Below are positions 13,607 to 22,903 of a stretch of DNA of 64,000 bases, piece after piece. Source of the stretch: Fibrobacter intestinalis. GTDB lineage: Bacteria > Fibrobacterota > Fibrobacteria > Fibrobacterales > Fibrobacteraceae. The DNA is taken from NCBI RefSeq assembly GCF_900167415.1, contig NZ_FUWU01000004.1, positions 1 to 64,000 on the forward strand, read 5' to 3'. The notes beneath the pieces were generated by a model. That model was not told the DNA's origin, did not search any database, and saw only the letters and a program-made list of their open reading frames with translations. Position 1 is the stretch's first letter. Each line of letters starts with the position of its first letter. Position numbers and translations under genes: made by a program.

Positions 13607-14953
13607 TTAGTTCATTGCGAGCGTCCTGCCTATCGGCAGACATAGCGCAACATTGTTGTTTGCAAAAACGTCAAGTCCTTGTTTCTCATTGTAAACTAAA
13701 ACATTTTTCACCAGTTCCGCCAATTTATATTGCGCAATTTCGTCTCGGCGGCAATTTTTCAAAACGGATTTCACGTCCAGCCGGATGCCGACGATTTGGT
13801 GATAGGGTTTTGTTCCGTCCACCCAGTCGGCGACAGCCGTTCCCAAATAATTCATTTCGTAAGGGGCAGAACCTTCGCCCTCGCTGCAAAACGGAAGCAG
13901 GAACACATTGAAAATTTGCTCGCCCTCCGCCAGTTTCTTTTTTTCCGCATATTCGGCATAGACAATCTGCTTGCTGATGGAACTTGACGAGGGAAGATTG
14001 TTCCTCGTATAAAATTTCGCATCCACTATAAAAAGCTCCTCTCCCCGGCGCATGATAGTATCTGGCCGCATAGCGAATTTTTTGTCATCCGCATTTTTGG
14101 TCAAACCGCCTGCAAGACGCCATTCGCAATGGGGGTTGAACAAATCCTTGCTTTCCCCCTCGGAAAGATTTCCGAAAATGCGGTCCAGCATTTTTTCCCA
14201 GACAGGAGCAAAGCTGGATACGCCATAACAACAATCCATAAGAGTCCCGTCAACCAGATTTCCTTGCAAGTATTCTACAATCCCTTTCATGGCACCAAAA
14301 AAGCGGCATTTTCTGTCGTTGAAAGTTCTAGAAAGTTTTTCTTGAAGCACCGACGAAAAAAGTTCGTAATCAAAATCGAGTGAGGATTCCACATCCGTTT
14401 CAACACCATAAAGAGGACCCACAAGCCTTTGTGCCTGGGCCACGCAGAACTCATGAATCAACGTAACCAGCTGATTTTCATTTTGCGCTGGGCAACTGGA
14501 AACCATGTCCAAATAGACAAATTCTGCGCCCCGTCCGCTTTCAAGAACCTGAGGGCGAGTGTGCTTTATGGTTCGGCTCCAATTGATTTTACCATGGACT
14601 CCCTGCTTGTAAATTTTTTCTGTTTCCTTGAACAAACCGAAGTTCAGATAATACTCAAGGACAACGAAAAATTCCTGCAACGGAAAATCCAACTTCGTTT
14701 CAAATTCCAAAGAAGAGGCGTAATGGGAATTTTCCACAGCGTCCATCAAACAATGGTCCGAAAGAACATTCATCAAACATGAAAAAACGCCGCGAAGCTC
14801 TTCGTCGGAAACATTTTCAAAATCCCGAAAACATCCGTAAGGGAAATAGACTTGCGGTTTTCCACCTGAAAATTTTATCCCGACGAATTGTTCACTCGCC
14901 TCTTGCCCTTCATTCTGCGCCATGCAAAATTTTTTGAATTCGCCATCGTCCAT
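13607..14953 (-). CDS. LlaJI-type restriction endonuclease subunit (PD-(D/E)XK)
   Basis: This 448-aa protein resembles the nuclease partner (R2/McrC-like) of LlaJI-type systems. The catalytic PD-(D/E)XK core is visible near the C-terminus: RPDTI (Asp298), then IVDAKFY (Asp311, Lys313), followed by a QIVYAEYAEKK helix typical of McrC/LlaJI nucleases. It starts 10 nt after the AAA+ gene, whose TAG stop is part of a TAGGA ribosome site. Oddly, its last 11 codons (about 13610-13642) lie in a dispersed repeat also found at 23260-23290, so the original 3' end may have been replaced. The family assignment is from motif recognition and context. Confidence 0.82.
   Translation of the reverse strand: MDDGEFKKFCMAQNEGQEASEQFVGIKFSGGKPQVYFPYGCFRDFENVSDEELRGVFSCLMNVLSDHCLMDAVENSHYASSLEFETKLDFPLQEFFVVLEYYLNFGLFKETEKIYKQGVHGKINWSRTIKHTRPQVLESGRGAEFVYLDMVSSCPAQNENQLVTLIHEFCVAQAQRLVGPLYGVETDVESSLDFDYELFSSVLQEKLSRTFNDRKCRFFGAMKGIVEYLQGNLVDGTLMDCCYGVSSFAPVWEKMLDRIFGNLSEGESKDLFNPHCEWRLAGGLTKNADDKKFAMRPDTIMRRGEELFIVDAKFYTRNNLPSSSSISKQIVYAEYAEKKKLAEGEQIFNVFLLPFCSEGEGSAPYEMNYLGTAVADWVDGTKPYHQIVGIRLDVKSVLKNCRRDEIAQYKLAELVKNVLVYNEKQGLDVFANNNVALCLPIGRTLAMN
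13612..13642 (-). repeat. Dispersed 31-nt repeat, left copy (inside nuclease 3' end)
   Basis: On the minus strand this stretch matches 23260-23290 at all but two positions. Both copies contain a short internal palindrome (CTGCC-GA-NAGGCAG type). The two copies are in opposite orientation and lie at the two edges of the accessory island. Confidence 0.8.
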
Positions 14954-14963
14954 TTCAGTTTTC

Positions 14964-16904
14964 CTAGAAATTCAGGTTTTTGAAAACCCCAGAGAAACCA
15001 TCCTTCTCAAACTTTTCAATTAAGGACTCGACGGACTTGCAATCTTCTTGAAAGACCTCCTTTCGCTTATACTTGAAGGCATCGTTCCAAAGATATTCCA
15101 GCACCTTTTCGCCAAAAAGTTTCTTTGGAATTTCGCGACAGGTATTGTCTCCGTCCTTTTTTTCTTCGCCCATGATAAAATAGGCGCCAAGGCGTTTGTC
15201 TTCGGAGCTGGTCATGGAAGAATGTTTTTCTAAAATCAGCTCGTTGATGCGTTTCCAAAAGGTGCCCCAAGTGATATTTGCACCTTCGATTTTTGTTTCC
15301 CGCTGCGCCTTGTGTTCATCGCCATCCAATGAATTTTTAACCAGTTCGGAATCAAAGCGGCGGCGAAAGGCATTGTCCAATGTAAACACGTTCTGGTCGC
15401 TGGCATTCATGGTGGCGTAAATGGAAAGATTGGGCGGAAGGCGAATGCCGGTGGATTCCCTGAATGCCTGCGGATTTGAAAATCCTTGAAGGCTCAATTC
15501 CAAAGAGCTGTAAGAGGTCGCGCTTGCCAAGTCCAAAAATTTTTCACCATTCGGTTCCGCGGAGTCCACAGGATTGCCGTCACCGTCCATCATCTCCTTA
15601 GGATGATTCGCCTTTTGGCAACCGCTATGGGCAAACTTTTGAAAAGCCTCGATGTTACGGATGTAATCATTGACGTCATCGTTTAAAATGGAATAGGAAC
15701 TCCAGCCGGCTGTAAATCCGTTTTGGTCTTTTTCGCCGGGCTTGATGCGATCCAAAAGCTGGAACATTTCGCCGAAAATAGCGGCAGCGTTTCCACGATT
15801 GATTTCTTCGATAACGAGGAAAAATTTTTTGTCTGGATTCAAGTAGGCACGACGCAAAATTTCCGCAAACGGCCCCGCCTTGAATTTGTATTCAACGCCC
15901 TTGCCTTCTTTTGCCACAGGAAAAATCTGCCCCACAAAATCAGCATTGGTGTACTCCGGGTGGAATACGCAACGGATGACCTGCATTTCCTCATCCGCAT
16001 TTTCTTCCGTTAATTTTTCCTTGATTTTACGGCTTTTGCCGCAACCCGGAACTCCGTAGTAGATTTTTTGGATGGGGGAGAAATTGAACTGGCGATAATT
16101 CATTTCTTCCCCCAACTGAAAATCATCTAAATCAGAAAAAAACGGAGTTTGTTCTTGTTTTTCAGAGACACTCGCTTTGCCAATGCAACCTTCATGTAAA
16201 GCATTCTTGAAGATTCTTAAACCATAACGCACATTTTCTATTGCCGATTTATTGATGGACTCATCTAATTTTTGAGCTTCCATTACAATTTTAGAAACAG
16301 CCATGTTCAGTTTGCCTATGATATTTCCATATTTAAAACCGAAAAAAGAAAGCCTTGTATTTTTATAAAGGTCATATTCTTCTTTAAGACATTCGGCAAT
16401 TTTTTGGATAATTTGATCTTCGCTTAAACCTGCTGTAAATTCGTTTTCATCCCTTAAGGGGAAGATTAGGCTTCGCTTTTCGCTTGATTCTAATTCTTTA
16501 TTTTGAGCCACATCTTTATCTTTCAAACTATCAAAAAAACTTTGCAGTGTAATATTATCATAGATTTTTTGAGGATTATTTGGAGAATTTCCTTGATAAA
16601 CTTCCCATAGTTCTTTTTCGGGATTTTGATGTACTAAAACATACTGATCATTATGCAACAAGGACACTCCAGTAAATTGATAGTCGGTCAAAGATTTTCC
16701 ATTTAAGGAATCTAACAATAGGATAAACTGATTTCGCAATATACCACTATTAAGTCTATTACGACCTTTGGGACCATTTGCAACAGTATATTCATTTGAA
16801 TTAAAAGCTTTGGCAGTTCTTTTTATCGTTTCGTCATTTTTAAGGGTTTGATTAAAACCATACATTTCAAAAAGATGTTCAGCATTCTGTTTGTCAAACA
16901 TCAT
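14964..16904 (-). CDS. McrB-like AAA+ NTPase subunit of the restriction system
   Basis: This 646-aa protein has an N-terminal region of about 250 residues of unknown type. It is followed by an AAA+ domain of the McrB/LlaJI-R1 clade: Walker A GVPGCGKS near residue 285, Walker B with the McrB signature IEEINRGNAAAIFGE near 365, and a sensor/arginine region ATMNASDQN...FRRRFD. McrB-type proteins use NTP hydrolysis to translocate DNA and activate the nuclease partner. The start is ATG 16904, overlapping the methyltransferase stop by 4 nt (ATGA). The GTG nine bases upstream is less likely. Confidence 0.85.
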   Translation of the reverse strand: MMFDKQNAEHLFEMYGFNQTLKNDETIKRTAKAFNSNEYTVANGPKGRNRLNSGILRNQFILLLDSLNGKSLTDYQFTGVSLLHNDQYVLVHQNPEKELWEVYQGNSPNNPQKIYDNITLQSFFDSLKDKDVAQNKELESSEKRSLIFPLRDENEFTAGLSEDQIIQKIAECLKEEYDLYKNTRLSFFGFKYGNIIGKLNMAVSKIVMEAQKLDESINKSAIENVRYGLRIFKNALHEGCIGKASVSEKQEQTPFFSDLDDFQLGEEMNYRQFNFSPIQKIYYGVPGCGKSRKIKEKLTEENADEEMQVIRCVFHPEYTNADFVGQIFPVAKEGKGVEYKFKAGPFAEILRRAYLNPDKKFFLVIEEINRGNAAAIFGEMFQLLDRIKPGEKDQNGFTAGWSSYSILNDDVNDYIRNIEAFQKFAHSGCQKANHPKEMMDGDGNPVDSAEPNGEKFLDLASATSYSSLELSLQGFSNPQAFRESTGIRLPPNLSIYATMNASDQNVFTLDNAFRRRFDSELVKNSLDGDEHKAQRETKIEGANITWGTFWKRINELILEKHSSMTSSEDKRLGAYFIMGEEKKDGDNTCREIPKKLFGEKVLEYLWNDAFKYKRKEVFQEDCKSVESLIEKFEKDGFSGVFKNLNF

Positions 16905-17905
16905 ACCCCCCACTTTTTTAAATTATTCTTGCTTTGTGGTTCTGGAGAGCTTGCGCCAAGGGGAAAGCCCATAAGATATTCGGCATTCTTTGGAGACGGC
17001 TTTTCAAACACCTTTTTGAAATTACGGCAGCCCTGATGTTTCATCATGGATGGAGCAGAATAATTCGCCATTGTCGTGGGAGTATGAACCAATCCCATCT
17101 CTTCACCGAAAGTTTTCTTAATCCATGTTTTTTGGATTTCAAAAACCTTGGCAATTTCTTCATTTGACACAACTTCTGTATAATCGCCGTTTTCAATATG
17201 ACGATTCACTAAAATTCTAAACGCAGATGCCGCGACAAAAGGAGATTGCGCGTTTCCTATACCTTTTAATTGTTCTCTGCGGTCAATAACCTCAACTTCT
17301 TGAGCCAAAACATCCGGATTTTTGCTCCAATATCCCCCCTTAAAAACAGGCAATGATAAAATGTGTTTTTTCAAGTGTTCAAAAATACTCTTGTCCTTCA
17401 CCGCTAAAAGCCAAAAACGATTTCTCTGATGATCAGCTCCTAAATCAGAACAACTTAATCGGCAAAATTTTACGTTATAGCCTATAGATTCCAAATCCTG
17501 CTTGGCTTTGCTGATTGCCAGCAAAACAACATTTTCTCCAAAAACAATCGGGGCGTTAGATTCTTTAACGAATCTAAACATTTCATCCCAGAGATTTTTC
17601 TCGGCAATATTCTTTCCGTGTGCCGCAGTGCTAAAAGCTTGACAAGGAAAACCTCCACAAAGGACATCAAATTTCCCCTTATAATCATTACCATTTAAAG
17701 TGCGAAGATCTCCATAAATGGCAAACTCGTTCATCCATCCGTCTTTTTGACGCTGTTTTAGAACTTTCTGACAAAACTCGTTGATTTCAACTCCCGCACA
17801 ACATCTATGACCAAGGAGTATTCCTCCATAGATACCTCCGCCTATACCTGCGAACAAATGAAATTCTTTTATAGAGTTTTCATCGGCATCGTCTTTTCCA
17901 GCCAT
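16901..17905 (-). CDS. DNA (cytosine-5) methyltransferase
   Basis: This m5C methyltransferase of 334 aa modifies cytosine with SAM to protect host DNA. Motif I is FAGIGGG (about 18-24), motif IV GGFPCQAFS holds the catalytic Cys near residue 87, motif VI is ENV, motif VIII is QRNRFW-like, and motif X is GIGNAQSP. After motif X comes a C-terminal block ending EYLMGFPLG, an arrangement seen in phage-like Dcm enzymes. It is the first gene of the RM operon. LlaJI itself carries two methyltransferases; only one is present here. The recognition sequence is unknown. Confidence 0.92.
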   Translation of the reverse strand: MAGKDDADENSIKEFHLFAGIGGGIYGGILLGHRCCAGVEINEFCQKVLKQRQKDGWMNEFAIYGDLRTLNGNDYKGKFDVLCGGFPCQAFSTAAHGKNIAEKNLWDEMFRFVKESNAPIVFGENVVLLAISKAKQDLESIGYNVKFCRLSCSDLGADHQRNRFWLLAVKDKSIFEHLKKHILSLPVFKGGYWSKNPDVLAQEVEVIDRREQLKGIGNAQSPFVAASAFRILVNRHIENGDYTEVVSNEEIAKVFEIQKTWIKKTFGEEMGLVHTPTTMANYSAPSMMKHQGCRNFKKVFEKPSPKNAEYLMGFPLGASSPEPQSKNNLKKWGV

Positions 17906-18717: not shown

Positions 18718-18759
18718 TTGTTAGAAATCAGCGAACATAATACCATTAGTGAGGACTCG

Positions 18760-19131
18760 ATGACTTTTGGAGATTTTGTAAGGGAAAAGCGCCTCAATGT
18801 CGGCGTAAACCTTAGGGCTTTAGCCAAGGAATTGGGCATAGTCCCTGCCTATATGAGTGATATCGAAAAAAATCATCGTTATCCGCCTGAAAAGGAAAAA
18901 ATCTTTAAGATTGCCGAAGTTTTGAAATTGACGGAAGAAGAAAGAAACCAAATGTTCGATTTGGCAGGCGAGGCCAGAGTGGGTACTATTGCCCCGGATA
19001 TTTCTGATTATGTAACCAGTCAAAGTGCTGCTCGTGTAGCACTTCGTAAAGCGAGGGACTTAAATCTTGGCGAAAAGGAATGGATGCTGATTTTAAGGGA
19101 TATAGAAAAACAAGGGCAAAATAATAAATGA
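18760..19131 (+). CDS. Xre-family HTH regulator (ImmR/RosR-like)
   Basis: This 123-aa protein starts at ATG 18760 (MTFGDFVREKRL), after a GAGGA ribosome site. The N-terminal helix-turn-helix runs over about residues 5-60 (LRALAKELGIVPAYMSDIEKNHRYPP). It is followed by a region like the C-terminal part of ImmR-type regulators (EERNQMFDLAG). It overlaps the next gene by 4 nt (ATGA). Pairs of this kind occur in mobile elements and toxin-antitoxin-like modules: the Xre protein represses the pair and the ImmA peptidase cleaves it under stress. That role is family knowledge, not shown here. Confidence 0.85.
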   Translation: MTFGDFVREKRLNVGVNLRALAKELGIVPAYMSDIEKNHRYPPEKEKIFKIAEVLKLTEEERNQMFDLAGEARVGTIAPDISDYVTSQSAARVALRKARDLNLGEKEWMLILRDIEKQGQNNK

Positions 19132-19820: not shown

Positions 19821-20183
19821 ATGGAATACAAAGAAGACGAAACGCCTTTGTTTGTTGATGTGGCACTAGATGAAAAGGGGCGAGAAGCTCTTGAATACGG
19901 CTATTATCAAGTCGAAGAATACAAATCGCATTTCAAAAGCCTGGTGTTGACTCATCAGGAATTTGATTTAATCAATGCATTTCTTTTAACCTTTGTGGAA
20001 GAATTCAACGTCTTTGTCGATAGGGGTGAATTTTCGACACTACCTAATAAAAATGTTCCGAAAGCAAAGGCATTGACCAAAGCCTACGCACAACAACATC
20101 CCGAAGCAAAAGCTGTCTGTGACAAGCTGATTATGCAGTTTGATGTAGCGATAGAAAGCGGCAATGATGTGGAATTTACGTAA
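19821..20183 (+). CDS. Hypothetical protein of the Xre-ImmA operon
   Basis: I do not recognise this 120-aa acidic protein. It has a good AGGAG ribosome site (about 19811-19815) and lies 9 nt after immA, so it probably belongs to the same transcript. Composition suggests mixed alpha/beta with a helical C-terminal half. Its last 31 codons are duplicated at 21693-21788 (84 of 94 bases identical by hand). This shows that the C-terminal part existed as a paralog or was copied. Confidence 0.7.
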   Translation: MEYKEDETPLFVDVALDEKGREALEYGYYQVEEYKSHFKSLVLTHQEFDLINAFLLTFVEEFNVFVDRGEFSTLPNKNVPKAKALTKAYAQQHPEAKAVCDKLIMQFDVAIESGNDVEFT

Positions 20184-20240
20184 GAAGAAAAATTTTTTAT
20201 TGAAATTGTCAGAAAAAAGCGAACAACAAACAGTATAAAG

Positions 20241-20897
20241 ATGAAGATTGACAAATACACCATAGCGGCCGAGTTAGAGAAATTCGTAAAGGAGAAAGGA
20301 GTCTCCTTTATAGAAGATTTTCCAGCCATTCCCCAAGATATGCTCATTCGGGAAATCCCCAATGAAATACTCCCATTTCCGAATCATCTTAAAGCAAAAA
20401 ATCCAGCAAAGACGTTGCTTTGTAATTTTTCAAACGATGAAATCTTATACGAATCTTTGGCCCGTCTTGAGGATCGTGTAAGCATAGCAAAAGGTTTCAT
20501 AGGAATATGCGGTTTTGATTTTAGCGCCAGAGAAGGCGATGACGAGACAAATCAGGACTTTTATCTCTACTTGAACAAATTGTTAGATGCCTATTTTGCT
20601 CTGAACGGCATAAAAGTCCTTCCAAATTTTAGAATTTCTGGGAAATTGTCATCTTTACAGGTGTTTCACATTTATCCCCCTAAAACCTGGTACGCTGTCG
20701 GAACCTTAGGATGTGCGAAAGGTCATATAGCAGAAAATGAAACTCTGCTCCGTTATAAGTTAATCTTCGCACGGCCAAGTCATTTGCTTGTTTATGGTGT
20801 AATAAAAGAAGAATACAAAAAAATTCTAGAATCAAACGGAATTCCATATACTGTTTTTGAGGACTACGCTAGACGTTCTAGAGGAGGAAAAATATAA
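20241..20897 (+). CDS. DUF4417-like protein
   Basis: This 218-aa soluble protein resembles DUF4417, a family of unknown function found in phage and mobile-element contexts. The resemblance is in layout: a central ICGFDFS block, a GIKVLPNFRIS strand-like segment, a TLGCAKG turn and a RPSHLLVYG strand near the C-terminus. The assignment is by recognition and is moderate. The stop codon shares one base with the next start (TAATG), and no strong ribosome site precedes its own start. It is the first gene of a three-gene cassette lying between the full and partial copies of the preceding gene. Confidence 0.62.
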   Translation: MKIDKYTIAAELEKFVKEKGVSFIEDFPAIPQDMLIREIPNEILPFPNHLKAKNPAKTLLCNFSNDEILYESLARLEDRVSIAKGFIGICGFDFSAREGDDETNQDFYLYLNKLLDAYFALNGIKVLPNFRISGKLSSLQVFHIYPPKTWYAVGTLGCAKGHIAENETLLRYKLIFARPSHLLVYGVIKEEYKKILESNGIPYTVFEDYARRSRGGKI

Positions 20898-21328
20898 TGG
20901 ATGCAAAGGGAAAATACACAAGATTAGTTCAAACCGTCAAGGAGAACATTGACAAAGACAAAGTTCTAAAAAAATGCCTCGAAAATCGTAATCGACATCA
21001 GGCAAAAAATAAACAACTTTGGCAAAAGGTGAATTTGGATAAACTTGTTGAAAGATTTGCACCAGGCTCTGTTCCAGAAATCAATAACAATGGGAAAATC
21101 ATTTTCCATACACCAGGTAGCGATGTGCAATTGGTTGCAGAAGCGACAATTGGAAGCGTCCGAATAGAAAGTTTAAAAATCTCTAGTCACAGAAAATACC
21201 TAGATCTGGATGGAACTCTTCGAAATAATATTACCGTTAACGGAAAAACAAGAGGCAGAACAAAAGAGGAATACGAATTGGCGACTCACTTCAGAATTAT
21301 GAAACTAGAAGAAATGGGAAAAGAATGA
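20897..21328 (+). CDS. Hypothetical protein, possible nuclease-toxin-like C-terminus
   Basis: This 143-aa protein is of unknown function. The N-terminal half is basic and helical (KYTRLVQTVKENIDKDK). The C-terminal half has a compact block with SSHRKYLDLDG, a basic GKTRGRTKEEY and THFRIMK, reminiscent of small nuclease domains at the ends of polymorphic toxins. That resemblance is impressionistic. It is coupled to the upstream gene (TAATG) and the downstream gene (ATGA). If it is a toxin, the next gene is the obvious immunity candidate. Confidence 0.55.
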   Translation: MDAKGKYTRLVQTVKENIDKDKVLKKCLENRNRHQAKNKQLWQKVNLDKLVERFAPGSVPEINNNGKIIFHTPGSDVQLVAEATIGSVRIESLKISSHRKYLDLDGTLRNNITVNGKTRGRTKEEYELATHFRIMKLEEMGKE

Positions 21329-21681
21329 AGCAATACCAACATCAAAAATTTCTTCTTCAATGCGACTATGAAAAACTGGAGATGGGACGATTTTTTCAGA
21401 AAATGCCCATCGATACACCGTTATATTTGCAGGATTACAATTTATTCGACTATCCTGTGTATAGAAGAAAAATTCCGTTGTCAGTATTGGATAGGCAAAT
21501 TGATACGCAGCGAGATTTTGATGCCATTGCCGAGAAATTAAAATACGTAGATAAACTCTATCTCGTTGATGATAGGAAAAAAATAGAAAGTCCTTTTGTT
21601 CAAAGACATGCTTTGGCAACAAAGAAAGCCTTTCTTTGGCATTTCTTAAACGCTGGGATTAAGTGTTATATTGCACAATGA
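21325..21681 (+). CDS. Hypothetical protein, last gene of cassette
   Basis: This 118-aa basic and aromatic-rich protein is not recognised. Its ATG overlaps the previous stop by 4 nt, a strong sign that the two act together. No signal peptide or TM segment is seen. An immunity or partner protein for the preceding gene is a reasonable inference, but unproven. Confidence 0.55.
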   Translation: MKQYQHQKFLLQCDYEKLEMGRFFQKMPIDTPLYLQDYNLFDYPVYRRKIPLSVLDRQIDTQRDFDAIAEKLKYVDKLYLVDDRKKIESPFVQRHALATKKAFLWHFLNAGIKCYIAQ

Positions 21682-21692
21682 TTTTTTTGTAA

Positions 21693-21788
21693 ATGCAACA
21701 ACACCCCGAAGCAAAAGCAGTCTGTGACAAGCTGATTATACAGTTTGAAGCGGCGATAGAAAGCGGCTACGATGTGGAGTTTTCGTAA
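21693..21788 (+). pseudogene. Duplicated 3' end of the 19821 gene
   Basis: This 31-codon frame begins ATGCAACAACACCCCG. It matches the C-terminus of the gene at 19821-20183 (QQHPEAKAVCDKLI, then a DVEF ending). The aligned bases 20091-20184 and 21696-21789 are 84/94 identical. The reading frame is intact and changes are mostly conservative, so the piece derives from a once functional paralog rather than a fresh copy. It marks the right end of the 1.5-kb cassette. Confidence 0.75.
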
Positions 21789-21898: not shown

Positions 21899-22903
21899 AT
21901 GGGAAATATTCTGATTCGCATCCACACTCCGCAGGATGCCCTCTATTATTCCTTCACCCAAAGTGTTACCGGAACTTTGGACTATAACGGAAAAGAGAAT
22001 GCTCCGGACATTTCCGATTACCAGGAAATCGAGAGCAGCCATTATTTTTCGCCGAGCTGGTACGCTTTTTTGCCGAAGGAGTTCCAGGGCGAAATCCATA
22101 TTTTGTTTCAGAATTCCGTCGATTTGCAAAACGCCGACCTGTGTGCTTTCCTGACGCATGTCGGAGCCCTTCTTCTCGCTGTAGAAAACAAAGACAATCT
22201 TCTGGTCGCCGAATTGCTGGAACGCCGGACAGAAATCTTTTTTAAATTTTTGCCGCTGACCCTCTACATCATCAAGCCGGTAGCGCCTCTGGCCCTTTTC
22301 GCCTGGCTGTATGGGCGATTCTCGGATGCGGAGGGATTTTTGAAAATGTACAAGGAGAATTTGAAATTCCCCACCAAAGCCGATGCCGCGGAAATTCTCT
22401 TTGCAGCCGCCTTTGATGAATTGGATCCTCATCCAGAAAAAGAAAACGATACAGAAATGTTCGTCCGCTATTCGCAAAAACAAGAACAGGGCTCCTTTAC
22501 CATTGGCACCGTAGGTTCCCAACATCATTCCTGGAATAGTGACATTACCGAATTGGACTATTTTCTGAAAGATGCTTTTGTCAGGGATTTTGAAAATGAC
22601 CTATCCCGAATTCGCGAGAAAAAAGCGAAATTCATTTCGGAGCTTCAGGTTTCCATGCAAGCAGAGCCCTACAATCCCCACGACCCAAACGCCATAGGTG
22701 TTTCTATTGAAGACGTCATGGAAAAATTGCGCGGGAACAGCGGAAAATCCAAAGCGGGATATATACGCGCCTCTGGGGCAGCTATTCTTCGCAAGGCATT
22801 CCCCAGAAAACTTGCTTACAAGGCTTCTTTGATGCGGCTAGGCACCAATCTGTACAAAGGCGGTTTCGACAAAGAAGGCGTCGTCCTGCGTGTCAGATTC
22901 TAA
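21899..22903 (+). CDS. HIRAN-domain protein
   Basis: This 334-aa protein starts after a strong AAAGGAG ribosome site. Residues 1-200 are unrecognised, with a hydrophobic patch near 120-140. The C-terminal about 85 residues look like a HIRAN domain: EPYNPHDPNAIGV, then KAGYIRASGAAILRKAF and a terminal VVLRVRF strand. HIRAN domains bind DNA ends or 3'-OH ends and accompany helicases and nucleases. A stand-alone version in an accessory island suggests a DNA-sensing or defence role (inference). It is followed by a hairpin terminator. Confidence 0.7.
   Translation: MGNILIRIHTPQDALYYSFTQSVTGTLDYNGKENAPDISDYQEIESSHYFSPSWYAFLPKEFQGEIHILFQNSVDLQNADLCAFLTHVGALLLAVENKDNLLVAELLERRTEIFFKFLPLTLYIIKPVAPLALFAWLYGRFSDAEGFLKMYKENLKFPTKADAAEILFAAAFDELDPHPEKENDTEMFVRYSQKQEQGSFTIGTVGSQHHSWNSDITELDYFLKDAFVRDFENDLSRIREKKAKFISELQVSMQAEPYNPHDPNAIGVSIEDVMEKLRGNSGKSKAGYIRASGAAILRKAFPRKLAYKASLMRLGTNLYKGGFDKEGVVLRVRF

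What the first reader, a model, noticed from the sequence alone, without database searches (positions are those of the whole stretch)
20241..21788. Uncharacterised three-gene cassette between a gene and its duplicated tail
A DUF4417-like protein and two unknown proteins are stitched together by TAATG and ATGA overlaps, so they almost surely work as a unit. The unit lies exactly between a full gene (19821-20183) and a diverged copy of its last 31 codons. It sits next to an RM system, an Xre/ImmA pair and a HIRAN protein. The middle protein has a toxin-nuclease-like look. This is the best candidate here for an undescribed defence or toxin-immunity system.
Basis: inference. Interest (0 to 1): 0.72.

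Follow-up and report, generated by a model that had tools for sequence, protein, structure and literature searches.

The report
DUF4417-linked CdiA-type toxin–immunity cassette
A gut-type Fibrobacter carries, beside a restriction-modification system, a cassette holding a toxin related to the killing tip of contact-dependent toxins, its immunity gene, a DNA-damage-style repressor/protease switch, and an uncharacterised partner protein (DUF4417) that phages and bacteria repeatedly place next to many different toxins; this gives DUF4417 its first likely context and makes its role testable.

Summary
The upstream "full gene" (here X120, 19821-20183) belongs to it and, by homology, is the immunity gene. 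The middle protein (TOX, 20897-21328) is a toxin domain: relatives match the extreme C-terminus of a Moraxella CdiA-like protein (tblastn 2e-10; 84 bits with the family profile), and the ORF in that system's immunity position matches the X120 profile (19.6 bits, first of 887; next 9.0). TOX occurs at 28 places in 22 Fibrobacter genomes; every intact copy is with X120 and DUF4417, and three broken copies keep an intact X120. An Xre plus ImmA/IrrE-type protease pair completes the block; a 19-bp palindrome-like operator lies before Xre and again before DUF4417. Modules sit next to restriction-modification genes of many types (17/27 loci versus 0/20 random regions). More generally, DUF4417 precedes EndoU, Ntox50, PBECR1 and deaminase-like toxins in Fibrobacter, and hypervariable MGGRG proteins in phages (58/74 versus 27/571 other ORFs). 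Best reading: a stress-switched polymorphic-toxin/immunity cassette living in defence islands. Antiphage function and the role of DUF4417 are inferred. The duplicated tail is the remnant of a second immunity gene.

The parts
18719..18737 (+). Operator-like near-palindrome TGTTAGAAATCAGCGAACA upstream of Xre
   Evidence: 0 mismatches to a pattern conserved upstream of Xre in L004, L012, L159; expected 0.07 per window with up to 3 mismatches
18763..19131 (+). Xre/HTH_3 repressor (start by homology to L012; the longer ORF from 18631 would run over the operator)
   Evidence: HTH_3 1.1e-7; homology to L012/L159
19128..19811 (+). ImmA/IrrE-type (M78) metallopeptidase, HECFH motif, CapP-like
   Evidence: PF06114 26.0 bits over cut-off 22; PADLOC capP 9.2e-10
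19821..20183 (+). X120: immunity protein (CdiI-like)
   Evidence: present at every intact TOX locus; profile matches the ORF after the Moraxella CdiA-like gene, 19.6 bits, rank 1 of 887; kept intact where TOX is broken
20207..20225 (+). Second operator-like site (3 mismatches) just before DUF4417
   Evidence: same position in L012 (0 mismatches) and L159 (1 mismatch)
20241..20897 (+). DUF4417 protein, constant partner of diverse toxins; predicted TIM-barrel-like
   Evidence: PF14386 38.6 bits; AlphaFold2 pLDDT 83, pTM 0.84; Foldseek
20897..21328 (+). TOX: CdiA-CT-type toxin domain with helical N-terminus
   Evidence: homology of family members to the C-terminus of a Moraxella CdiA-like protein; invariant W42, N46, K67, G106, H131 across 13 members
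21325..21681 (+). P118: accessory protein of unknown role, present in 13 of 23 analysed modules
   Evidence: not related to the CdiI candidate
21696..21788 (+). Remnant of a second X120 (last ~31 codons)
   Evidence: 89% DNA identity, E 4e-33; tandem X120 copies in L180 (3) and L179 (2)
13607..17905 (-). Neighbouring LlaJI-type 5mC restriction-modification system (context)
   Evidence: RE_LlaJI 6.1e-24, AAA_5, C5 methylase 5.7e-28; PADLOC REase_II/MTase_II

Best explanation
This is a chromosomal polymorphic-toxin/immunity cassette that has been put under an intracellular stress switch. TOX is a CdiA-C-terminal-type toxin without any delivery part. X120 is its CdiI-like immunity protein, made from the regulator transcript (Xre-M78-X120). 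Xre binds two operators and keeps the DUF4417-TOX-P118 transcript low. When the ImmA/IrrE-like protease is activated (DNA damage, phage infection), it cleaves Xre, and the toxin transcript rises above what X120 can neutralise. The cell then stops growing, as a second line behind the adjacent restriction-modification system. DUF4417 is a constant helper of such toxins (binding, maturing or aiming them). Shown: homology of TOX and X120 to a CdiA-CT/CdiI-like pair, co-conservation, operator placement, RM neighbourhood, DUF4417-toxin coupling. Inferred: toxicity, neutralisation, protease trigger, antiphage role, the function of DUF4417 and P118.
For: TOX relatives match the last ~104-122 residues of a Moraxella bovis plasmid hemagglutinin-repeat (CdiA-like) protein: tblastn 2e-5 (L051) and 2e-10 (L037, a paralogue in this genome), family profile 84 bits. 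The ORF in the immunity position there scores 19.6 bits with the X120 profile, first of 887, next 9.0. All TOX loci outside the broken ones have X120 and DUF4417; X120 directly follows TOX in 20 of 26 rows and is fused to it in L170. TOX/X120/DUF4417 co-diverge (Spearman 0.81-0.86, Mantel 0.0005). Three broken TOX copies keep an intact X120. DUF4417 partners in Fibrobacteraceae include EndoU (84 bits), Ntox50 (72 bits) and PBECR1 (28.9 bits). Operator before Xre and before DUF4417. M78 is CapP-like; published CapH/CapP pairs control neighbouring immune operons (PMC13373217). RM genes near 17/27 TOX loci versus 0/20 random regions, Fisher 5e-6, of types I, II, IIG, ISP and III.
Against: No experiment. 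The window TOX versus Moraxella comparison rests on family members (31% identity in the alignment). No solved structure or Pfam toxin family matches TOX, and its model is poor (pLDDT 54.5), so the catalytic activity is unknown. RM neighbourhood can reflect a shared insertion hotspot rather than shared function, the loci are not all independent, the RM references partly come from the TOX loci, and the random regions were not matched for mobile content. Xre-M78 is not recognised near some modules (L051, L161-L163, L167-L169). M78 is broken in the second copy of this genome (L004), and L004 lacks the second operator.
Confidence: 0.62

Rival explanations
1. An orphan reservoir cassette of a secreted polymorphic-toxin (CdiA/Rhs-like) system: the toxin-immunity pair is stored and occasionally recombined onto a delivery protein, with no intracellular role of its own.
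For: TOX is a CdiA-CT-type domain; standalone cassettes are a known feature of polymorphic toxins (PMC3482391, abstract); the duplicated immunity tail fits recombination.
Against: TOX has its own conserved start, helical N-terminus and operon with DUF4417 in all groups; an Xre-M78 switch and operators are not needed for a silent store; RM neighbours instead of CdiA/Rhs genes.
Confidence: 0.17
2. A phage-derived effector cassette: DUF4417 plus a variable effector come from phage late regions, where the effector is packaged and injected; the bacterial copies are domesticated or remnant prophage cargo used against other phages or bacteria.
For: In phages DUF4417 lies close before terminase and its next gene carries GGRG in most cases (58/74 versus 27/571), including ART, glutamine-deamidase, CdiA_C and metallopeptidase hits.
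Against: The DUF4417, TOX and P118 subfamilies of the window were not found in IMG/VR by pattern scan, nor TOX and window DUF4417 in INPHARED by tblastn; no phage genes recognised around the modules; window TOX lacks the GGRG motif.
Confidence: 0.12
3. A plain selfish toxin-antitoxin addiction module that stabilises the neighbouring RM systems or islands, without antiphage activity.
For: Xre-M78, PIN-like and toxin genes are typical of TA islands; RM neighbours.
Against: Immunity is of CdiI type rather than a labile DNA-binding antitoxin; many RM types, no fixed partner; does not explain DUF4417.
Confidence: 0.09

Closest known systems
CdiA-CT/CdiI contact-dependent inhibition toxin-immunity pairs
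   Same: Homologous toxin domain and, weakly but rank-first, homologous immunity protein next to it
   Different: No TpsA/CdiA delivery region, no CdiB; TOX is a 143-aa standalone protein behind DUF4417
MuF / polyvalent phage effectors (PMC5576092, PMC5512222)
   Same: Variable toxin domains of the same kinds (EndoU, PBECR, ART, metallopeptidase) in phage late regions, here found next to DUF4417
   Different: The window set is chromosomal, has no MuF or head domain and no GGRG motif in TOX; neither paper holds the word DUF4417
CapH-CapP (ImmR-ImmA, DdrO-IrrE) switches of immune operons
   Same: Xre repressor plus M78 protease upstream of the operon; PADLOC capP 9.2e-10; operator-like sites before both transcripts
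   Different: Here they precede a polymorphic toxin cassette, not CBASS/BREX/DISARM; cleavage untested
ParB-CTPase-DUF4417 fusions (PMC12704722)
   Same: DUF4417 domain; phage members with an N-terminal extension annotated ParB-like seen here too (L053)
   Different: Window protein is DUF4417 alone; that paper did not link DUF4417 with toxins (0 occurrences of 'toxin' in its text)

Membership tests
DUF4417 (PF14386) | Score above the family cut-off over the domain | tested here: met
   38.6 bits versus 28.9, residues 29-192
CdiA-CT/CdiI polymorphic toxin pair | Toxin domain homologous to a CdiA C-terminal domain | tested here: met
   tblastn 2e-10 and 84-bit profile hit at the C-terminus of a hemagglutinin-repeat protein
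CdiA-CT/CdiI polymorphic toxin pair | Cognate immunity gene next to the toxin | tested here: met
   X120 next to TOX or one gene away at all intact loci; weak homology to the CdiI candidate
CdiA-CT/CdiI polymorphic toxin pair | CdiA delivery region and CdiB partner | tested here: not met
   TOX is 143 aa and no CdiA/CdiB-type ORF lies in the operon; therefore not filed as a CDI system
CapH-CapP regulated immune operon | HTH repressor plus M78 peptidase upstream of the operon | tested here: met
CapH-CapP regulated immune operon | Protease cleaves the repressor on ssDNA or damage and derepresses the operon | not testable with these tools
   needs an in vivo reporter
Known antiphage defence system (PADLOC) | Match of a core protein to a PADLOC model | tested here: not met
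   0 families for X120, DUF4417, TOX, P118
TGT/DpdA superfamily (for DUF4417) | TGT-like TIM-barrel fold | tested here: inconclusive
   most of the Foldseek top 50 in the PDB are TGT (prob 0.87-0.99) but E 0.01-0.06, TM 0.41-0.51; phage queuine tRNA-ribosyltransferases come next after the best hits in BFVD
TGT/DpdA superfamily (for DUF4417) | Profile homology to TGT | tested here: not met
   hhalign with 30 Fibrobacteraceae TGTs: probability 0.1-0.4 per cent scale as printed

The most novel reading that the evidence does not exclude
DUF4417 is the constant component of an undescribed class of conflict systems, shared by phages (variable MGGRG effectors near terminase) and by bacterial defence islands (variable polymorphic toxin plus immunity plus CapH/CapP-like switch beside RM), in which DUF4417 binds or enzymatically modifies the variable effector; its predicted TGT-like barrel suggests a nucleobase- or nucleic-acid-directed activity.
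Probability: 0.35. Interest if true: 0.85.

Novelty: new variant of a known kind. Interest (0 to 1): 0.63.

Why it matters
DUF4417 is widespread in phages (474 matching INPHARED records with one query) and had no functional context in the open literature searched. Showing that it is coupled to interchangeable toxins in bacteria and to hypervariable GGRG proteins in phages turns it into a marker for finding new effectors and immunity genes. It also shows a contact-toxin domain apparently moved under a DNA-damage-type switch next to restriction systems, a route by which weapons between bacteria could become internal defence.

Tried and rejected
Metabolic family: rejected, no such Pfam/NCBIfam/PHROGs match. 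TOX as HEPN/AbiV (E 0.0097) rejected: only one of 8 members matches. P118 as ParBc_2 or Mur ligase: sub-threshold single hits. TOX fold from AlphaFold2: two-sequence alignment, pLDDT 54.5, Foldseek hits at probability about 0.5 or lower; not used. PDB sequence-profile searches of TOX, DUF4417, P118 and X120 gave nothing usable. A phmmer 'hit' of the Moraxella stretch to tau chains is an artefact of the linker before the toxin domain. TGT homology of DUF4417 by profile comparison failed. Viral scans for TOX, window-type DUF4417 and P118 found no relatives. TOX was found in only two genera among 168 genomes of the phylum. A caveat on MGGRG: some phage loci carry further MGGRG genes in arrays, so the motif is not exclusive to the adjacent gene.

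Full report
Observation. The three ORFs, their overlaps and the duplicated tail are as described. The tail is 83/93 identical (E 4e-33) to the end of the gene at 19821-20183, so it is not chance.

The unit is larger. The same block Xre - M78 - X120 - DUF4417 - TOX - P118 occurs in this genome on another contig (L004), in G001 (L159) and in Fibrobacter UBA4375 (L012; L160 looks like the same place in G104). Deeper relatives keep DUF4417 - TOX - X120, with P118 in 13 of the 23 loci analysed. In 111 genomes of the family and 168 of the phylum the TOX profile finds the same 28 places in 22 genomes of two genera. DUF4417 is directly before TOX in 21 of 26 rows, 16 with a 1-base overlap; X120 is directly behind TOX in 20; in L170 TOX and X120 are one reading frame; in the window group X120 lies before DUF4417.

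What TOX and X120 are. No library names TOX. But two family members, L051 and L037 (the latter in this genome), match the extreme C-terminus of a hemagglutinin-repeat (CdiA-like) protein of about 3,300 residues on a Moraxella bovis plasmid (tblastn 2e-5 and 2e-10), and the family profile gives that domain 84 bits. The alignment keeps W, N, K, G and a C-terminal invariant H, mostly in a THF motif. A weaker relative ends a 261-aa ORF in Neisseria. The small ORF right behind the Moraxella gene, the immunity position, is the best of 887 small ORFs for the X120 profile (19.6 bits; next 9.0), while P118 shows no relation. With X120 retained intact where TOX is broken (L045, L175, L178), X120 is most simply the immunity protein.

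Switch. Xre and an ImmA/IrrE-type protease with HECFH precede the cassette; PADLOC's capP model matches the protease at 9.2e-10. A 19-bp near-palindrome, TGTTAGAAATYAGCKAACA, lies before Xre in all four copies of this block and again between X120 and DUF4417 in L012 (0 mismatches), L159 (1) and the window (3), but not in L004. This suggests two repressed transcripts: Xre-M78-X120 and DUF4417-TOX-P118 (inference). [quoted passage not shown] Other TOX modules have separate or fused Xre-M78 proteins, some with a PIN-like gene; several have none recognised.

Neighbourhood. With thirteen RM proteins as BLAST references, 17 of 27 TOX loci have an RM relative within the fetched stretch, against 0 of 20 random stretches of the same genomes (Fisher 5e-6). 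The references include proteins taken from the TOX loci themselves, which favours the TOX set; the independent motif test [NDS]PP[YFW] gives 16/27 against 3/20. Pfam confirms types I, IIG, ISP, III, D12, EcoRI-like and LlaJI. The RM types differ even next to closely related modules, so there is no fixed partner. 7 of 13 other DUF4417 loci also have RM relatives.

DUF4417 in general. This genome has 11 DUF4417 matches. In other Fibrobacteraceae loci an adjacent gene encodes EndoU (84 bits), Ntox50 (72 bits), PBECR1 (28.9 bits, just over cut-off) or a deaminase-like domain (23.7 bits, just under), usually with a further small gene behind, sometimes duplicated. In 80 IMG/VR loci the gene behind DUF4417 contains GGRG in 58 of 74 cases, against 27 of 571 other ORFs; 53 of these neighbours share almost nothing but GGRG (mean column identity 11%), and a few match ART, glutamine deamidase, CdiA_C or metallopeptidase models. 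Phage examples lie close before terminase. The AlphaFold2 model of the window protein is good (pLDDT 83); Foldseek finds mostly tRNA-guanine transglycosylases in the PDB at probability up to 0.99 but E 0.01-0.06, and phage queuine tRNA-ribosyltransferases just behind the best viral hits. A profile comparison with bacterial TGTs gives no support, so only a TIM-barrel-like fold is claimed.

Mechanism and status. Most likely a stress-switched CdiA-type toxin with CdiI-type immunity and a DUF4417 helper, acting inside the cell as a back-up to RM. The toxin-immunity part is well supported (about 0.85); intracellular defence about 0.5; the role of DUF4417 is open. It is not a CDI system, because the delivery part is absent, and not any system in PADLOC. 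The open-access library holds three papers that mention DUF4417, none of them on toxins as far as read (one, PMC5478533, was seen only in the list), so the coupling appears undescribed there; subscription papers and preprints were not searched.

Noticed in passing
L170:4760-5536 (-): Natural in-frame fusion of TOX and X120 in one 258-aa ORF, with the conserved TOX end (EM) lost at the join.
   Followed up: partly
L234:2411-2429 (G003:C1:298910): A perfect copy of the operator stands alone some 350 bases behind a LlaJI-type restriction gene with no module beside it, as in L012 where the module follows such a gene: probably the relic of a lost module.
   Followed up: partly
phage loci, for example L103:4071-5349: Arrays of several consecutive MGGRG-starting genes behind DUF4417, each with a different body.
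   Followed up: no
L033:1706-2956: Two tandem copies of a 175-178 aa immunity-like protein behind a deaminase-like toxin and DUF4417.
   Followed up: no
L045:4500-6358: Broken TOX plus intact X120 directly before a Cas1-like gene (recognised by eye, not searched).
   Followed up: no
window 21899-22903: 334-aa protein with only a sub-threshold HIRAN match (E 0.033); not part of the conserved module.
   Followed up: no
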